From Xanthomonas sp. GPE 39 (GTDB taxonomy: Bacteria; Pseudomonadota; Gammaproteobacteria; Xanthomonadales; Xanthomonadaceae), in assembly GCF_000963005.1 (NCBI RefSeq), contig NZ_JZHZ01000007.1:2836621-2900620 (forward strand): DNA of 64,000 bases, given 5' to 3'. The position numbers and the translations under genes were made by a program. This document shows, piece after piece, positions 8,344-14,707 of this stretch. Under the pieces are notes generated by a model, which searched no databases, was not told where the DNA came from, and saw only the letters and a list, made by a program, of their open reading frames with translations. The first letter of the stretch is position 1, and the number at the start of each line of letters is the position of its first letter.

Positions 8344-10272
8344 TCAATGCGCGACTGCGCCGGCCTTGGCCTTGTCCAGCATGTCCTGCACCGACACCGC
8401 GGTGATCGGATGGTATCCAGGCTTGGCCTGGGCGAAGACCTGCTCGGCGAACGCCAGGCCGTCCGGGGTCTTCACCAGCTCCGCGTAGATCGGCAGGATC
8501 AGCCGACGGCGACCGATGCGGGCGATGAATTGCCCAGCCGCCGGGCGCGCATCGAGGTCGCCGCTGCGGATGGCCAGCGGGTACCAGCGCATCGCGATCT
8601 CGCCGTTCGGCGTACCGGTGAAATGGTAGGCCGCGTCGAGCTGCTTGATCTGTTCCAGACTGAGTACAGGCGGCAGGCCACTGAGGAAACGCACCCATTC
8701 CTGCGTGCTCCAGGCATCGGTGATCTGCTTGCCCGGCAACGTGCCACTACCATTCCAGGCGATGCGTGCGGTGTCGACCATCGTGAAATTGCGCGAGCGC
8801 GCCTTCTGTGCGAAAGCGGGAATACCCGGCTCGTCCAGCCACGCATGCAACTCCTTCTCACTCACCACGCCCGGCTTCTTGGCCAGCAAATGGGTTTTCA
8901 GATAATCGACGAATTGGTCGGTGTTGGCACTCTGGAAAGCGTGGTCATCGAACCAACCGCGCAGGAACGCATCGAACGTGTCGCGACCGAAACGTTGCTC
9001 CAGAAATTGCAGGAACCAAGCACCTTTGACATAGGCAATCTGACTCAGAGCATCGTCTGGATCGCGCTCGGTCAGCGCTGGCAGCGCCAGCAGTTGGTCG
9101 GCCGGACGGATGCCCTGCAGATCGGCCAGTAAATCGGTTTGGTCGATCTGGCGCTCCATCTCGGCCGCTTCGGCACCGTACAGCGCTTCGGTGATGCGTG
9201 CCTGTACATAGGTGGTGAATCCTTCGTTGAGCCAGATATCTTTCCAACTGGCATTGGTCACCAGGTTGCCGGACCAGCTATGTGCCAGTTCGTGCGCGAT
9301 CAGCGACACCAGCGACTTGTCGCCGACAATCACGGTCGGCGTGGCGAAAGTCAGACGCGGATTCTCCATGCCACCGAACGGGAACGACGGCGGCAACACC
9401 AGCATGTCGTAGCGGCCCCAGCGATACGGGCCGTACAGCGTCTCGGCGGTGACGATCATTTTTTCGGTGTCTTCAAATTCCTTGGCCGCCTTGTCGGCCA
9501 TCGCCGGTTCGGCCCACACGCCAGAACGTGCGGAGATCGGCTTGAACACCAAGTCACCAGCGGCGATGGCGAGTAAATAAGACGGGATCGGCTGCGGCAT
9601 CTTGAACGTGTAGTCGCCGTCGCGCACCGCGTTCGGATCGTTGTCGGCGCTCATCAACACCATCACGTCCGGACGCGAGACCACATGCGCGCTGTAGGTG
9701 AAGCGCACGCTCGGCGTGTCCTGCAACGGCACCCACGAGCGTGCGTGGATGGCTTGCGACTGGCTGAACATAAAGGGCAGCTTTTTGCCCTCGGTCATCG
9801 CCGGCTCCAGCCACTGCAAGCCGGAGGCAGTGGCGGAGGTGTGGTAGGCGATGGTGATCTTCTGTGGCCGGTTCGGCGCATCGATCGTCAGCTTGCTGCC
9901 GTAGATCGGGTTGGCCGGCGCCAGCGCGTACTGCAGCGGCGCCAGATCGCCCTTGCCATCGTCGGCCTGCACCTTCTCGATGGTCAGCTCGCGGGTATCC
10001 AGGACCAGTTGTTTGGCGTTGCGATCCTTCCAGTCCAAGGTGTAGGTCGCGGTGCCGCCGATCTGCTTGTGGTCGAAATCCAGCTTGAGATCCAGCGCCA
10101 GATCCTTGATGACGACCTTGGAGGGCTCGGCATACGAGGTCTCGTCGTGGCTGCGATCCACGCGCGGCGCGGCGGCAGGGGTTGCGGGAGCGGCGGCGGC
10201 AGGAGTCTGGTCGTTGGAACAGCCCGCCACGCCGATCGCGACAGTCAAGGTCAACAGCAAGGGAGATCGCAT
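8344..10272 (-). CDS. M1-family zinc aminopeptidase, lipoprotein
   Basis: A 642-residue peptidase. The start at 10272 gives MRSPLLLTLTVAIGVAGC, a signal peptide with lipobox VAGC; an Ala/Pro-rich linker follows. The catalytic domain has the exopeptidase motif PFGGMENP and the zinc site HELAHSWSGNLVTNASW with NEGFTTY (HExxH-x18-E). The C-terminal helical domain is of the leukotriene A4 hydrolase/cold-active aminopeptidase type. It would trim N-terminal residues of peptides in the periplasm or at the outer membrane. It is a single gene, separate from its neighbours. Confidence 0.92.
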   Translation of the reverse strand: MRSPLLLTLTVAIGVAGCSNDQTPAAAAPATPAAAPRVDRSHDETSYAEPSKVVIKDLALDLKLDFDHKQIGGTATYTLDWKDRNAKQLVLDTRELTIEKVQADDGKGDLAPLQYALAPANPIYGSKLTIDAPNRPQKITIAYHTSATASGLQWLEPAMTEGKKLPFMFSQSQAIHARSWVPLQDTPSVRFTYSAHVVSRPDVMVLMSADNDPNAVRDGDYTFKMPQPIPSYLLAIAAGDLVFKPISARSGVWAEPAMADKAAKEFEDTEKMIVTAETLYGPYRWGRYDMLVLPPSFPFGGMENPRLTFATPTVIVGDKSLVSLIAHELAHSWSGNLVTNASWKDIWLNEGFTTYVQARITEALYGAEAAEMERQIDQTDLLADLQGIRPADQLLALPALTERDPDDALSQIAYVKGAWFLQFLEQRFGRDTFDAFLRGWFDDHAFQSANTDQFVDYLKTHLLAKKPGVVSEKELHAWLDEPGIPAFAQKARSRNFTMVDTARIAWNGSGTLPGKQITDAWSTQEWVRFLSGLPPVLSLEQIKQLDAAYHFTGTPNGEIAMRWYPLAIRSGDLDARPAAGQFIARIGRRRLILPIYAELVKTPDGLAFAEQVFAQAKPGYHPITAVSVQDMLDKAKAGAVAH

Positions 10273-10357
10273 ACAGGCCACCGCATCGGGCAAAACCGGA
10301 TTCTAACGCAGCCCGCCCGCATGCCGTGCGGCACCCAATTGGGCGCATGCCACCCCG

Positions 10358-11077
10358 TTAGGTCGATAACTCCTGTGCGTGCCAGCTTGTCGGCAACGCC
10401 AGGAAATCGCGCTCCTGCCATTGCGCATGTTCAAGGTATTCCTCGGCAATGCCACGAATCAGTTGCTGTTTCATCTCATCTCCCATGGACAGCAGCTCGG
10501 CGACCGGCAAATTCCGGCGTCGCGCGAAACGGATCGCATACCGATATCCGTCGACATCCTCAAGGATCGGGCGCAGCGCAGGATCGGGCCATAGCGCCAC
10601 CAGTTCTTCCAGCAACGAGGAGCCCTCCTCCTGCCGCGTGCGCAGCATCTGCTCGACGCGGCGCAGCGCCCTGCCGAGGAACGCGGCAGGATCGCCCATG
10701 CGCAATCTGCGCGAATGCCACTGCCAACCGCTCGCCCAGTGCGGATCGATGATCATGCGATTGATCAGCGAAATCGACCCTCCCTCCAGGATCACGCCGC
10801 CAGCAGCGCTGTGCCGGTCAACCATATCCTTGAGTAAGGCGTGCGCCTCATCCGCTGCGATGATGCCCTCGCGCACCGCGCGCGAGGCGAGATAGATCCT
10901 GCGAGTGCCGCGCAGCTCTGACGACAACGGACGCCCGCTGCCGGTCGCCAGTTCGGGATAGCACTGAATGCGATCCAGCGCGATGACCGGCCATCCGGTC
11001 TGCTCAGCCAACGCCACGGCGAGCGCAGTCTTGCCGCTGCAAGTCGGCCCCCAGATCAAATGCAACGTCCCGCTCAT
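10358..11077 (-). CDS. tzs: Adenylate dimethylallyltransferase (cytokinin synthase, Tzs/Ipt type)
   Basis: A 239-residue enzyme that closely follows Agrobacterium Tzs/Tmr from end to end. It has P-loop GPTCSGKT (residues 10-17), ALDRIQCYPELATGSGRP with Asp35, TRRIYL, LEGGSISL, ILEDVDGYRYAIRFAR and EEYLEHAQWQERDF. These enzymes join a C5 prenyl diphosphate to AMP, the first step of bacterial cytokinin synthesis. By eye, Asp176 and His217 correspond to residues reported to set Tzs prenyl-donor choice. It is far from tRNA prenyltransferase MiaA in motif pattern and is shorter. The start at 11077 overlaps the upstream gene stop (ATGA). No LOG-type phosphoribohydrolase is in the window. Confidence 0.9.
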   Translation of the reverse strand: MSGTLHLIWGPTCSGKTALAVALAEQTGWPVIALDRIQCYPELATGSGRPLSSELRGTRRIYLASRAVREGIIAADEAHALLKDMVDRHSAAGGVILEGGSISLINRMIIDPHWASGWQWHSRRLRMGDPAAFLGRALRRVEQMLRTRQEEGSSLLEELVALWPDPALRPILEDVDGYRYAIRFARRRNLPVAELLSMGDEMKQQLIRGIAEEYLEHAQWQERDFLALPTSWHAQELST

Positions 11078-11661
11078 CGCTCGCCGGTCTCTTCCAGGCA
11101 TGGCCTGTGCGTAAGCGCATCGCCCGACCGGGCACAGGTATGCATGTAGTTGGCAATCAAGTTGACCGCATGCTCACGGATTCCCTCCCTCCAGCCCGAG
11201 GACAGGATCAGACCACTGCGCTGCTCCTCGGCGTGCATATAAGGTGTTTCCCATTCGATCCGGACAGCAGCGTCGGTGCATTCCTCAAGCTCTCGACCCA
11301 ACGCTTGCCCTTCGCATCGATATAGAAGACACGTTCGCACGCCTTGCCGGACTAGTGCATTGAAGTGCTCTGCTCGTGCGATTAATACGTCCCCCGCCAC
11401 CAACGGCATGGACGAATAGAAGCAAGCGATATCGGAGGAGCGGAAGCACGGATCGGATTGTGCATCGCCATCGCCTATCAAAAAAAACCGATTGCCGCTC
11501 GCAAGGCTGAATTTCAGCAGGCCAGTCTGCGGCAGACCCAACATTAACGGTGTTAACTGGCCGCAAAGAGCGGTGAATTCGAAGTCCTCGAAACCAAGGA
11601 CATCCATCAGTGCCAGCCATTCAAAGGTATCGCGGCTACCGCATTCAGGAGAAATCGCCAT
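11074..11661 (-). CDS. Unknown protein coupled to the cytokinin synthase gene
   Basis: A 195-residue soluble protein with no signal peptide or membrane helix and no recognised family. It contains eight Cys and several acidic/aromatic patches (TPYMHAEEQRSG, SGWREGIREHAVNL). Its stop overlaps the start of the isopentenyltransferase in an ATGA, so the two proteins are made together. Nothing in the sequence identifies an enzyme. Because it is upstream and coupled, it may supply, modify or control the cytokinin product. That is inference from position only. Confidence 0.7.
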   Translation of the reverse strand: MAISPECGSRDTFEWLALMDVLGFEDFEFTALCGQLTPLMLGLPQTGLLKFSLASGNRFFLIGDGDAQSDPCFRSSDIACFYSSMPLVAGDVLIARAEHFNALVRQGVRTCLLYRCEGQALGRELEECTDAAVRIEWETPYMHAEEQRSGLILSSGWREGIREHAVNLIANYMHTCARSGDALTHRPCLEETGER

Positions 11662-12215
11662 TCGCCACCAACCATCCCGATAAATCTAGACAGAAGAAAC
11701 GTATTGCGAAACGCATCGACTACAACAGCTTGCACACCATGCCGAGGGAACTATTCTTCAAAGAAATGCGTTTCAAAATCATGAAATCGACTCACCATCT
11801 TACAGCAGCCTCTATATTGCTTAGAGTGGTTAACAAAACCTCGCCCGTCGCTGTCGGGTAGGTGCGCACAGCGCGCAGAAAGGTTGTGTAAAGAGGGACA
11901 TAAGATTGCGCGTTGCCCGCGCAACGTCCATCTACGGCACAGTCGTTTTGTTAACGACTCTTAATGTATTTATTGATGACGCGTGAATTATTCGATCATT
12001 ATACCACTGATCGATCCGATGCAAATTCAGTAATATTAAGCTTCACATGGCGATGCGAGGCACGGCATGCCGTAAACCAACGCATCCGCCAAGACTCAAT
12101 CAGTCAGGCCAATGTTGGGCGGTCTGGCCACTACCTTGAACGCCTTCTGGATGCACAACTGCGCAGGCAGACGCCACAGCGACGCGACGCATTCGCCACC
12201 AGCAAAATGATAGGC
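11662..12215. other. 554-bp intergenic region with one MITE-like repeat
   Basis: This region is A+T-richer than its surroundings and holds no convincing gene. It should contain the promoter of the two-gene cytokinin unit (near 11662-11760) and carries repeat copy A at 11821-11963. The remainder up to ubiE shows no recognised motif. Confidence 0.6.
11821..11963 (+). repeat. MITE-like 140-bp repeat, copy A
   Basis: Terminal inverted repeats GAGTGGTTAACAAAAC (11824-11839) and GTTTTGTTAACGACTC (11945-11960) differ at one position and are flanked on both sides by TTA, a possible 3-bp target duplication. The interior shares the word pattern GTCGCTGTCGGG-TAGGTGCGCACAG with copies B and C. It has no coding capacity. 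Size and ends fit a non-autonomous element mobilised by an IS5-type transposase. Confidence 0.75.
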
Positions 12216-12977
12216 TCAGATCTTATAGCCGGAATGGATCGCCACGATTCCACCCGTCATATTCTTGTAGTGACTGCGGGCAAAGCCGGCCTCTTCCATC
12301 ATCGCTTTCAACGGCTCCTGCGGCGGATGCTTGCGGATACTTTCAGCCAGGTACTGGTAGCTCTCGGCATCCTTGGCGAACAATTTACCCAGCCGCGGCA
12401 GCACCTTGAACGAGTGGAAGTCGTAAAGCGGCTTGAACCAATCGACGGTGACCTCTGAGAACTCCAACACCCGCACTTGTCCGCCAACCTTGAGGACACG
12501 GTACATCTCGCGCAATGCCGCGTCCTTGTCGGTCACGTTGCGCAGACCGAAGGCGATGGTGACCAGATCGAAGCACTGGTCCGGGAACGGCAGCGCCTCG
12601 GCATTGCATTGCACATACTCCAGGCCAGCCACCAAGCCACGATTGGTCAGCCGGTCGCGCCCCACCGACAACATGCCGGCGTTGATGTCGCCAAGCACCA
12701 CCGCGCCGTCGCTGCCGACGCGCTCCTTGAGCAGCGCGGCGATATCGCCAGTGCCGCCCGCCAGATCGAGGACGCGGTCGCCCGGTTTGACCTGGGCTGT
12801 GGCCACGAAATAACGCTTCCACACCCGATGAATGCCCAGACTCATCAGATCGTTCATCAGATCGTAATTGCCCGCGACCGAGGTGAACACCTCGCCGACC
12901 AGCTTTTGCTTGTCCTTGGCGGCAACGTCGCGGAAACCGAAATGGGTCGTACCAGTGGTGTAAGGAGATTCGCTCAT
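12216..12977 (-). CDS. ubiE: Demethylmenaquinone/2-octaprenyl-benzoquinol methyltransferase UbiE
   Basis: A 253-residue SAM-dependent C-methyltransferase. It has an N-terminal [12 protein letters not shown] segment, the UbiE signature [21 protein letters not shown] motif [13 protein letters not shown], the motif around [27 protein letters not shown], and the C-terminal signature [15 protein letters not shown]. It methylates the ring of ubiquinone (and menaquinone) precursors at the inner membrane. Length and motifs are normal for the family. It stands alone on the minus strand. Confidence 0.96.
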
Positions 12978-13342
12978 GCCCGGGATTATCGCACTGCCAG
13001 CCGTTCTATGGTGGTCGTGGCGTTGGCAAGATCGGCACCTTGGCAATCCGGCCGATGTGACACGGATCCCCCCACGCAGTTGCCGACACGCCCCCTGAGC
13101 ACTCTGGACCTGATGTGACGCAAACCACAGCCTGATGCGCGTCATGGACCACCCCTCCTGCAAGCAATGGCTCTCATGCCGGGACAATCGCTACGCGCCG
13201 TACCGCGGCACATCCATCCCAACGCATCTTTCACTTTGCAACGCCAGAGCGCGGCAGACACCACCCCAGACACAGCAGATTCATCCGCAAGCAATCCCTG
13301 CATGATCGAATGAATTTCCTTGTCCAGGCTTGGAGATCCAAG
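12978..13342. other. 365-bp intergenic region between divergent genes
   Basis: This gap lies between the divergent ubiE and DUF2252 genes and should hold both promoters. No gene, repeat or RNA structure was recognised. Confidence 0.5.
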
Positions 13343-14707
13343 ATGTCCGCCCGCAGACCACTTTGGTTATTGATCGGCATGACCCTCGCCACAAGCAGTT
13401 GCGATGCGCTGGAAGCCAGCAAACGCGACGCATGGGTGGTGCAGCAGATCTACAACGACAACCATCCCTATGCCGCGCAACACGGCGAACTGGATACCAA
13501 GATGGCAAAGATGGCCGCAAGCGCCTACGCCTTCTATCGCGGCACCGACACCATCTTCTATCACGACATGAAGCGCTTGCCGTGTTCGCCGTGGACATCT
13601 CCGCAGACCAGCTACACCTGGCTCAACGGCGACGCGCACATCAACAACTTCGATGCGGCACGTAACAGCAACGGCGTGGCCGCCTTCAAAGTCTCCGACT
13701 TCGACGAAGGCCATCTCGGCCAGTACATCTGGGACCTGCGCCGGCTGGCGGCGAGCATGGTGCTGGCCGGACGCGACAACGGCCTGTCCGACAGCGACAT
13801 CGGCAATGCGATTGACACCATGGTCGGCGCCTACATGGACAAGATCCGCCAGTTCAGTGGCAGCGATGCGGAAAAGAGCTTCCAGTTGACCAAGGACAAC
13901 ACCAGCGGCGCCGTTGCCAAGATCATCGACAAGGCCGATGGCAAGAGTCGCGACAAGTTACTGTCCAAGTACACCGAGGTCAGCGATGGCAAGCGCACGT
14001 TCCAGACGCTGAAAGATCTGGTCGCCGTGGACAATGCCACTACCACGGCAGTCGCAGCGGCAATGCCTGGCTACATCGACTCGATCTCCACCTCCGAACG
14101 TTATCCATCCAGCTACTACACGATCAAAGACGTGCGTCAGAAGCTGGGCTCTGGCGTCGGCAGCCTCGGTCGGCTGCGTCTGTATGTGCTGATCGAAGGC
14201 CCCACAACCTCCACCGACGATGATGTCATCCTGGAATGGAAGCAGGAAGCCAGCAGTGCGGTGGCAATCGCCGCGCCATGGCAGATGCCCGCTTTCACCT
14301 ATGACAACAACGAAGGCGCGCGTGTAGCGCGCACCGCCAAAGCGCAGACCATCGCCGCCGACGTGCTGATCGGCTACACCTGGCTCAACGGCACGTCGTT
14401 CTACGTGCACGAAAAATCGCCGTTCCAGGAAGACTTCGATCCGAGCATGCTCAACAGCACCGACACGTTCGCCACCGCAGCGATTTATGCAGGGCAAGCA
14501 CTGGCCTCGGCACATGCGTTGGCCGACCGGGACAACAACCCCAAGATGGTGCCTTACAACATCGACAAGCAAATCGACAAAGCCGTCACCAGCACAAGCG
14601 GGCTGAAGTGGGAGCTGCGCCGGTTCGCATTCGATTATGCCGCGCAGGTGCAATTGGATTGGCAATCCTTCGTGGCCGCGTACAAGGCAGGGACACCGCT
14701 GTACTAG
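13343..14707 (+). CDS. DUF2252 family protein, exported
   Basis: A 454-residue protein with an N-terminal hydrophobic segment (RPLWLLIGMTLATSSC) that looks like a signal peptide, then a DUF2252 domain. Visible family landmarks are DMKRLPCSPW, WLNGDAHINNFDA and FKVSDFDEGHLGQYIWDLRRLA, a kinase-like nucleotide-binding pattern with conserved Asp residues. The start at 13343 is preferred over the ATG at 13310 because GGAG lies just upstream. The biochemical role of the family is unsettled. The stop codon at 14705 directly abuts repeat copy C. Confidence 0.85.
   Translation: MSARRPLWLLIGMTLATSSCDALEASKRDAWVVQQIYNDNHPYAAQHGELDTKMAKMAASAYAFYRGTDTIFYHDMKRLPCSPWTSPQTSYTWLNGDAHINNFDAARNSNGVAAFKVSDFDEGHLGQYIWDLRRLAASMVLAGRDNGLSDSDIGNAIDTMVGAYMDKIRQFSGSDAEKSFQLTKDNTSGAVAKIIDKADGKSRDKLLSKYTEVSDGKRTFQTLKDLVAVDNATTTAVAAAMPGYIDSISTSERYPSSYYTIKDVRQKLGSGVGSLGRLRLYVLIEGPTTSTDDDVILEWKQEASSAVAIAAPWQMPAFTYDNNEGARVARTAKAQTIAADVLIGYTWLNGTSFYVHEKSPFQEDFDPSMLNSTDTFATAAIYAGQALASAHALADRDNNPKMVPYNIDKQIDKAVTSTSGLKWELRRFAFDYAAQVQLDWQSFVAAYKAGTPLY

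What the first reader, a model, noticed from the sequence alone, without database searches (positions are those of the whole stretch)
10358..11661. Cytokinin synthase (Tzs/Ipt type) in a xanthomonad-like chromosome, coupled to an unknown gene
The 239-residue protein carries the full Tzs motif set, and its gene overlaps an unknown 195-residue gene in an ATGA. Ipt/Tzs is best known from Agrobacterium, Rhodococcus, Pseudomonas and Ralstonia plant pathogens or gall formers. In this background it suggests hormone manipulation of a host. The coupled gene may be a new accessory factor.
Basis: partly seen in the sequence, partly recalled or inferred. Interest (0 to 1): 0.75.

Follow-up and report, generated by a model that had tools for sequence, protein, structure and literature searches.

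The report
Cytokinin gene pair in a xanthomonad
A close relative of the sugarcane leaf-scald bacterium carries a plant-hormone (cytokinin) gene of a known kind, and the unknown gene joined to it belongs to a small, overlooked family whose known copies all sit just in front of such hormone genes.

Summary
Window 10358-11077(-) encodes a 239-residue adenylate isopentenyltransferase (IPT) of the Tzs type: Pfam IPT 321.6 bits, 58.7% identity to Agrobacterium Tzs, 16 of 16 inspected Tzs positions unchanged, clear separation from MiaA. Its start overlaps, as ATGA, the stop of a 195-residue gene, 11074-11661(-).

That gene is not private to this locus. Clear homologs sit directly before ptz in Pseudomonas savastanoi and before IPT+LOG in a Bradyrhizobium plasmid; pre-etz of Pantoea, of unknown function, looks like a distant relative (likely, not proven). 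The 6 clear copies and 4 Pantoea copies all lie directly before an IPT gene. The gene is under purifying selection but is absent from 10 other IPT loci examined, so it is accessory.

In the genus, 4 of 20 genomes carry the pair, each time between ubiE and an M1 peptidase gene. They do not form a clade, and between two carriers the cassette is far more diverged than its flanks: repeated gain or replacement at one site is likely.

An IPT gene in X. albilineans was noted in print in 2011. What is new here is the family joining the upstream genes. The role of the 195-aa protein, probably tuning IPT output, is inferred; no fold could be predicted.

The parts
10358..11077 (-). ipt: Tzs-type adenylate isopentenyltransferase, 239 aa
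   Evidence: Pfam IPT 321.6 bits; Tzs 2ZE5 E 3.5e-81; 16 of 16 inspected Tzs positions identical; tree
11074..11661 (-). upstream coupled gene, 195 aa, family of the gene before ptz (and probably pre-etz); function unknown
   Evidence: homologs; alignments; selection
11074..11077 (-). ATGA overlap of stop and start codons (translational coupling, inferred)
   Evidence: junction sequences; the same ATGA in X. albilineans and both Pantoea pairs examined
11662..12215 (.). low-G+C interval (0.49) before the cassette, probably holding its promoter (inferred)
   Evidence: only one sigma-70-like site in 10200-12300 on both strands, no more than chance
12216..12980 (-). ubiE, conserved neighbour on one side of the insertion site
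   Evidence: Pfam 306.7 bits
8344..10293 (-). M1 peptidase gene, conserved neighbour on the other side
   Evidence: Pfam; found in 20 of 20 genomes of the genus

Best explanation
The locus is a two-gene, translationally coupled cytokinin cassette. The second gene makes a Tzs-type adenylate isopentenyltransferase that joins AMP to DMAPP or HMBPP, giving isopentenyladenine- or trans-zeatin-ribotide (inferred from homology and active-site residues). A LOG-family protein encoded elsewhere in the genome could release the free base (gene present, role inferred). The first gene makes a small protein of a family found so far only directly upstream of such IPT genes. It most likely raises or tunes IPT output, as a partner protein or regulator, rather than supplying a step that IPT cannot do without (inferred). 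The cassette sits at a fixed site (ubiE - M1 peptidase), where it was probably gained or replaced more than once.
For: IPT identity. LOG family elsewhere in the genome: 179.2 bits. Coupling: ATGA in the window, X. albilineans and two Pantoea pairs, TAATG in G004, TAA-ATG in Bradyrhizobium, 6-base gap in G019. Linkage: in the genus, IPT and the upstream gene are in the same 4 of 20 genomes; 6 clear copies and 4 Pantoea copies all lie before IPT. Purifying selection on both genes (dN/dS 0.16-0.35). Not needed for synthesis as such: ptz alone directs cytokinin synthesis in E. coli (PMC5478681, passages), and 10 other IPT loci lack the gene. Site; cassette dS 0.90 and 1.01 against flank dS 0.21 and 0.13 between G019 and G004.
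Against: No activity, expression or interaction data. In P. savastanoi the two genes are 112 bases apart and ptz is said to have its own promoter, so coupling is not universal. The window's upstream gene has faster divergence (dS 0.48 to X. albilineans) than ipt (0.29). The Pantoea link is weak by profile comparison. A single old insertion with losses is not excluded.
Confidence: 0.7

Rival explanations
1. The 195-aa protein is itself an enzyme of the pathway, acting on the IPT product or on a prenyl donor, so that the pair makes a modified cytokinin.
For: Strict neighbourhood with IPT; conserved residues such as D77, R109, S149, W157 and G160 invariant in 7 aligned rows.
Against: No match to any enzyme family in Pfam or NCBIfam and none in PDB sequences (one of 7 rows matched DUF2380 at 0.0027); a LOG gene accompanies the pair in Bradyrhizobium, so the protein does not replace LOG there.
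Confidence: 0.2
2. The upstream frame acts only in cis: its translation opens the ipt start, and the protein product itself does nothing.
For: Overlapping or near-touching junctions in seven of eight pairs examined.
Against: Purifying selection on the amino-acid sequence and residues conserved between genera need a working protein.
Confidence: 0.08
3. The pair is a type III effector with its chaperone.
For: In the genus, 3 of 4 carriers but 1 of 16 non-carriers have an hrcV over cut-off (Fisher p 0.013, kinship ignored).
Against: The window genome itself has no hrcV match over cut-off; no chaperone family match in Pfam; the IPT begins directly with its P-loop and has no extra N-terminal stretch.
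Confidence: 0.02
4. The 239-aa protein is a MiaA-like tRNA enzyme.
For: Shared P-loop and weak similarity over about 100 residues.
Against: The genome has a separate MiaA; miaA model 29.8 bits against cut-off 148.65; the five MiaA rows split off at 100/100.
Confidence: 0.01

Closest known systems
Tzs of Agrobacterium (PF01745; PDB 2ZE5-2ZE8)
   Same: 58.7% identity over 94% of the query; 16 of 16 inspected positions identical
   Different: no upstream partner gene at the pTi-SAKURA tzs locus; plasmid-borne beside virA
ptz locus of Pseudomonas savastanoi pPsv48A
   Same: IPT 49% and a homologous upstream protein, 32.2%, E 3e-16
   Different: 112-base gap between the genes; on a plasmid among transposase genes
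Bradyrhizobium sp. BWA-3-5 plasmid IPT locus
   Same: upstream protein 30.0%, E 3e-13, directly before IPT, 56%
   Different: followed by a LOG gene; root-nodule isolate
pre-etz/etz operon of Pantoea agglomerans pPATH
   Same: same order and the same ATGA overlap; distant similarity of pre-Etz
   Different: pre-Etz is 168 aa and only about 26% identical; IPT 38%; next to auxin genes (iaaM/iaaH named in PMC10425158, passages)

Membership tests
Adenylate isopentenyltransferase (Tzs/Ipt, PF01745) | match to the family model over its cut-off, and not to MiaA over its own | tested here: met
   321.6 bits against 20; miaA 29.8 against 148.65
Adenylate isopentenyltransferase (Tzs/Ipt, PF01745) | catalytic Thr10, Asp33 and Arg138 and AMP-binding Arg34 of Tzs | tested here: met
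   all four present; roles from PMC8234997 passages
Adenylate isopentenyltransferase (Tzs/Ipt, PF01745) | Asp173 and His214, tied to use of HMBPP (direct zeatin route) | tested here: met
   both present, as D176 and H217; role
Adenylate isopentenyltransferase (Tzs/Ipt, PF01745) | falls with Ipt/Tzs and apart from MiaA in a tree | tested here: met
   25-row tree, MiaA split 100/100
Adenylate isopentenyltransferase (Tzs/Ipt, PF01745) | makes cytokinin ribotides from AMP | not testable with these tools
   no assay
Gene before ptz (P. savastanoi) / Bradyrhizobium counterpart | sequence homology | tested here: met
   tblastn E 3e-16 and 3e-13 over 84% and 87% of the query
Gene before ptz (P. savastanoi) / Bradyrhizobium counterpart | directly upstream of IPT on the same strand | tested here: met
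pre-Etz of Pantoea | sequence homology | tested here: inconclusive
   18.5 and 13.5 bits for the two Pantoea proteins against 6.1 for the best of 2000 shuffles; reverse test: 3 of 6 proteins above the best of 1200 shuffles; hhalign E 3.6e-4 at 37% and 1e-3 at 21% probability
pre-Etz of Pantoea | directly before IPT with overlapping stop and start | tested here: met
   ATGA in both

The most novel reading that the evidence does not exclude
The 195-aa gene, the gene before ptz and pre-etz are one protein family dedicated to bacterial cytokinin synthases: a partner that sets how much, or which, cytokinin the IPT delivers, and that travels with IPT as a two-gene cassette between plant pathogens and symbionts, landing repeatedly at the same chromosomal site in xanthomonads.
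Probability: 0.4. Interest if true: 0.6.

Novelty: new member of a known kind. Interest (0 to 1): 0.4.

Why it matters
Bacterial IPT genes have been studied since the 1980s, yet the gene before ptz and pre-etz has stayed without a function, and pre-Etz was reported to have no putative homologs in 2023 (PMC10425158, passages). Joining these genes with copies in xanthomonads and a Bradyrhizobium gives an alignment, a set of conserved residues and a non-pathogen representative in which the role can be tested. It also shows that the cassette is kept in a carrier with no detectable type III secretion system, where hormone supply could matter more than injected proteins.

Tried and rejected
MiaA reading: rejected on model scores and tree. 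Type III effector with chaperone: disfavoured, since the window genome has no hrcV over cut-off. The 195-aa protein as a degenerate IPT: profile comparison E 0.49. Phage origin: no match in phage records at E 0.1 or viral contigs; PHROGs only at E 0.042 or worse over the seven aligned proteins. PIP-box: none in the window (consensus recalled). Promoter scan: no more sites than chance. Single ancestral insertion with losses: disfavoured, not excluded. Whole-cassette DNA relative on plasmids: no record covers 80% of the query. Wider draws added no carriers: IPT at E 1e-20 or better in 1 of 398 genomes (phylum) and 1 of 369 (class), both times the window's own genome; the upstream profile 1 of 398, again its own. 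Bradyrhizobium upstream protein against plasmids: two further weak matches in Rhizobium phaseoli at E 0.9, not counted.

Full report
1. What is there. Two genes on the - strand: a 195-aa frame (11661-11074) and a 239-aa frame (11077-10358) whose ATG overlaps the upstream TGA as ATGA. The flanks, on the same strand, are ubiE (12980-12216) and an M1 peptidase gene (10293-8344). The window lies at C1:2836621-2900620 of a 3.53-Mb genome. The one named relative that the scan of genome contigs returned for the 195-aa protein is X. albilineans CFBP2523. The peptidase gene and the miaA-region DNA are 92.8% and 91.6% identical to G001, whose contig has the same length as that X. albilineans record; the window organism is therefore probably a sister species. 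A review says that X. pseudoalbilineans lacks any type III secretion system (PMC8042644, passages). The window genome likewise has only an hrcV match of 610 bits, below the cut-off of 692, of the size (605-611 bits) seen in all 20 genomes, presumably the flagellar homolog. The species name is a guess; the taxonomy copy holds no name beginning 'Xanthomonas pseud'.

2. The 239-aa protein is a Tzs-type adenylate IPT. Pfam IPT 321.6 bits; miaA model 29.8 bits against a cut-off of 148.65. The best plasmid match is 61.5% (pTiQ15/94); Agrobacterium tzs is 58.7%. Of 16 inspected Tzs positions, 16 are identical in the window protein; the roles of Thr10, Asp33, Arg34, Arg138, Asp171, Asp173, His214 and Asp221 are from PMC8234997 (passages). 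In a 25-row tree the 5 MiaA rows separate at 100/100. In that tree 10 rows (window, X. albilineans, G019, G004, G538, G631, P. savastanoi, two Pantoea, Bradyrhizobium) form one group apart from the 7 Agrobacterium/Rhizobium rows (88/90, suggestive only); 8 of these 10 have the upstream gene. A LOG-family gene lies elsewhere in the genome (179.2 bits). Cytokinin synthesis is thus inferred, not shown.

3. The 195-aa protein. No Pfam or NCBIfam family for it, and no PDB sequence at E 10 with the seven-row profile; one of seven aligned rows matched DUF2380 at 0.0027. It does have homologs: three further genomes of the genus at 83, 54 and 44%, P. savastanoi pPsv48A directly before ptz (32.2%, E 3e-16), and Bradyrhizobium sp. 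BWA-3-5 directly before IPT and LOG (30.0%, E 3e-13). Pre-Etz of Pantoea, of unknown function and reported without homologs in 2023 (PMC10425158, passages), can be aligned with the family. A profile of the other six scores the two Pantoea proteins 18.5 and 13.5 bits, against 6.1 for the best of 2000 shuffles. The reverse test is weaker: 3 of 6 proteins lie above the best of 1200 shuffles, 3 do not. hhalign gives E 3.6e-4 at 37% probability over 30 columns, or 1e-3 at 21% with both Pantoea rows. I hold this link likely but not proven.

4. Association with IPT. In the genus, IPT over 300 bits is in 4 of 20 genomes, and the upstream gene is in the same 4 of 20. It is in none of the 80 other genomes, and among 398 genomes of the phylum draw only in the window's own. 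Of 72,556 plasmid records, 168 have an IPT match; the upstream gene was found in 2 with the window protein and in 4 Pantoea records with pre-Etz. All 6 clear and 4 Pantoea copies lie before an IPT gene; in one Pantoea record (C410P1) both genes are interrupted, and one (pPATHpag) was judged by its listed annotation alone. Against an obligate link: in the family draw 6 of 395 genomes have an IPT over 300 bits, and the two outside the genus, G538 and G631, lack the upstream gene, with no trace beside their IPT (the G631 contig ends about 160 bases beyond the IPT start). In their genus 2 of 35 have IPT and 0 of 35 the upstream gene. A seventh hit, G568, is a distant FasD-like IPT. In all, 10 IPT loci scanned (L034-L040, L071-L073) lack the gene.

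5. Evolution. The pair sits between ubiE and the peptidase gene in all 4 carriers (ubiE side of X. albilineans read from L003). In 15 of 16 non-carriers ubiE lies 104-1007 bases from the peptidase gene with no cassette; G002 is at a contig end and cannot be judged. The carriers are not a clade in the peptidase, miaA-region or combined trees, though some forks are weak. Between the window and X. albilineans, ipt dS (0.29) is like flank dS (0.28, 0.25), so the pair predates their split; dS of the upstream gene is higher (0.48). Between G019 and G004, ipt and upstream-gene dS (0.90, 1.01) are four to eight times flank dS (0.21, 0.13). Repeated gain or replacement at one site is the better reading; no mobility gene was seen between ubiE and the peptidase gene in the window. 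The upstream gene has lower GC3 (0.61) than ipt (0.75) and the flanks (0.78-0.80). Both cassette genes are under purifying selection (dN/dS 0.16-0.35).

6. Mechanism. Shown by sequence: gene identity, coupling, conservation, linkage. Inferred: IPT makes iP- or zeatin-ribotides; the upstream protein modulates IPT output. [quoted passage not shown] coli (PMC5478681, passages). Lichter et al. 1995 on pre-etz was not held and was not read.

7. Prior knowledge. Bardaji et al. 2011 already name X. albilineans and Ralstonia solanacearum among pathogens with a ptz-like gene (PMC3191145, passages). Three X. albilineans papers contain neither 'cytokinin' nor 'isopentenyl' in the main text (PMC4408752, PMC2810307, PMC3542200; term counts and some passages). 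I saw no paper on the upstream genes as one family in the listings of searches, in an open-licence library that lacks most subscription papers.

8. Verdict. Observation right; IPT identification right.

Noticed in passing
L049, L050, L051, L053, L055, L059, between ubiE and the peptidase gene: Six of the seven genomes G006, G007, G009-G013 (all but G010) carry one or two further, about 80% identical copies of the last 120 bases of ubiE between ubiE and the peptidase gene, perhaps scars of past insertion at this site.
   Followed up: partly
ubiE - peptidase interval of L047, L052, L054, L057, L060, L061, L062: Short cassette-free intervals (104-141 bases) hold an imperfect inverted repeat built of GGGATT/AATCCC units.
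   Followed up: no
own genome and genus (hrcV model): hrcV over cut-off in G001, G004, G005 and G019 only, 4 of 20; the window genome has none. 3 of 4 cassette carriers against 1 of 16 others; Fisher p 0.013, kinship ignored.
   Followed up: partly
L073 4221-5027 (-) and 611-1642 (-): G568, another genus of the family, has a FasD-like IPT (Pfam 110.8 bits; grouped with Rhodococcus FasD, long branches) about 2.6 kb from a LOG-like gene (Pfam Lysine_decarbox 113.8 bits).
   Followed up: partly
L043 3204-4414 (+): Pantoea stewartii DC283 has an intact pre-etz/etz-like pair on the 13-kb plasmid pDSJ03, next to an H-NS-family gene.
   Followed up: no
L044 3001-4696 (+): In P. agglomerans C410P1 both the pre-etz-like gene and the IPT gene are interrupted (found in separate frames).
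   Followed up: no
L071 303-1049 (-), L072 2979-3872 (-): The IPT of G538 and G631 reads TCSGRP where the window protein has TGSGRP, lacks the upstream gene, and lies among short repeats shared by the two genomes.
   Followed up: partly
window 13310-14707 (+): A 465-aa DUF2252 protein (Pfam 300.9 bits) on the opposite strand beyond ubiE.
   Followed up: no
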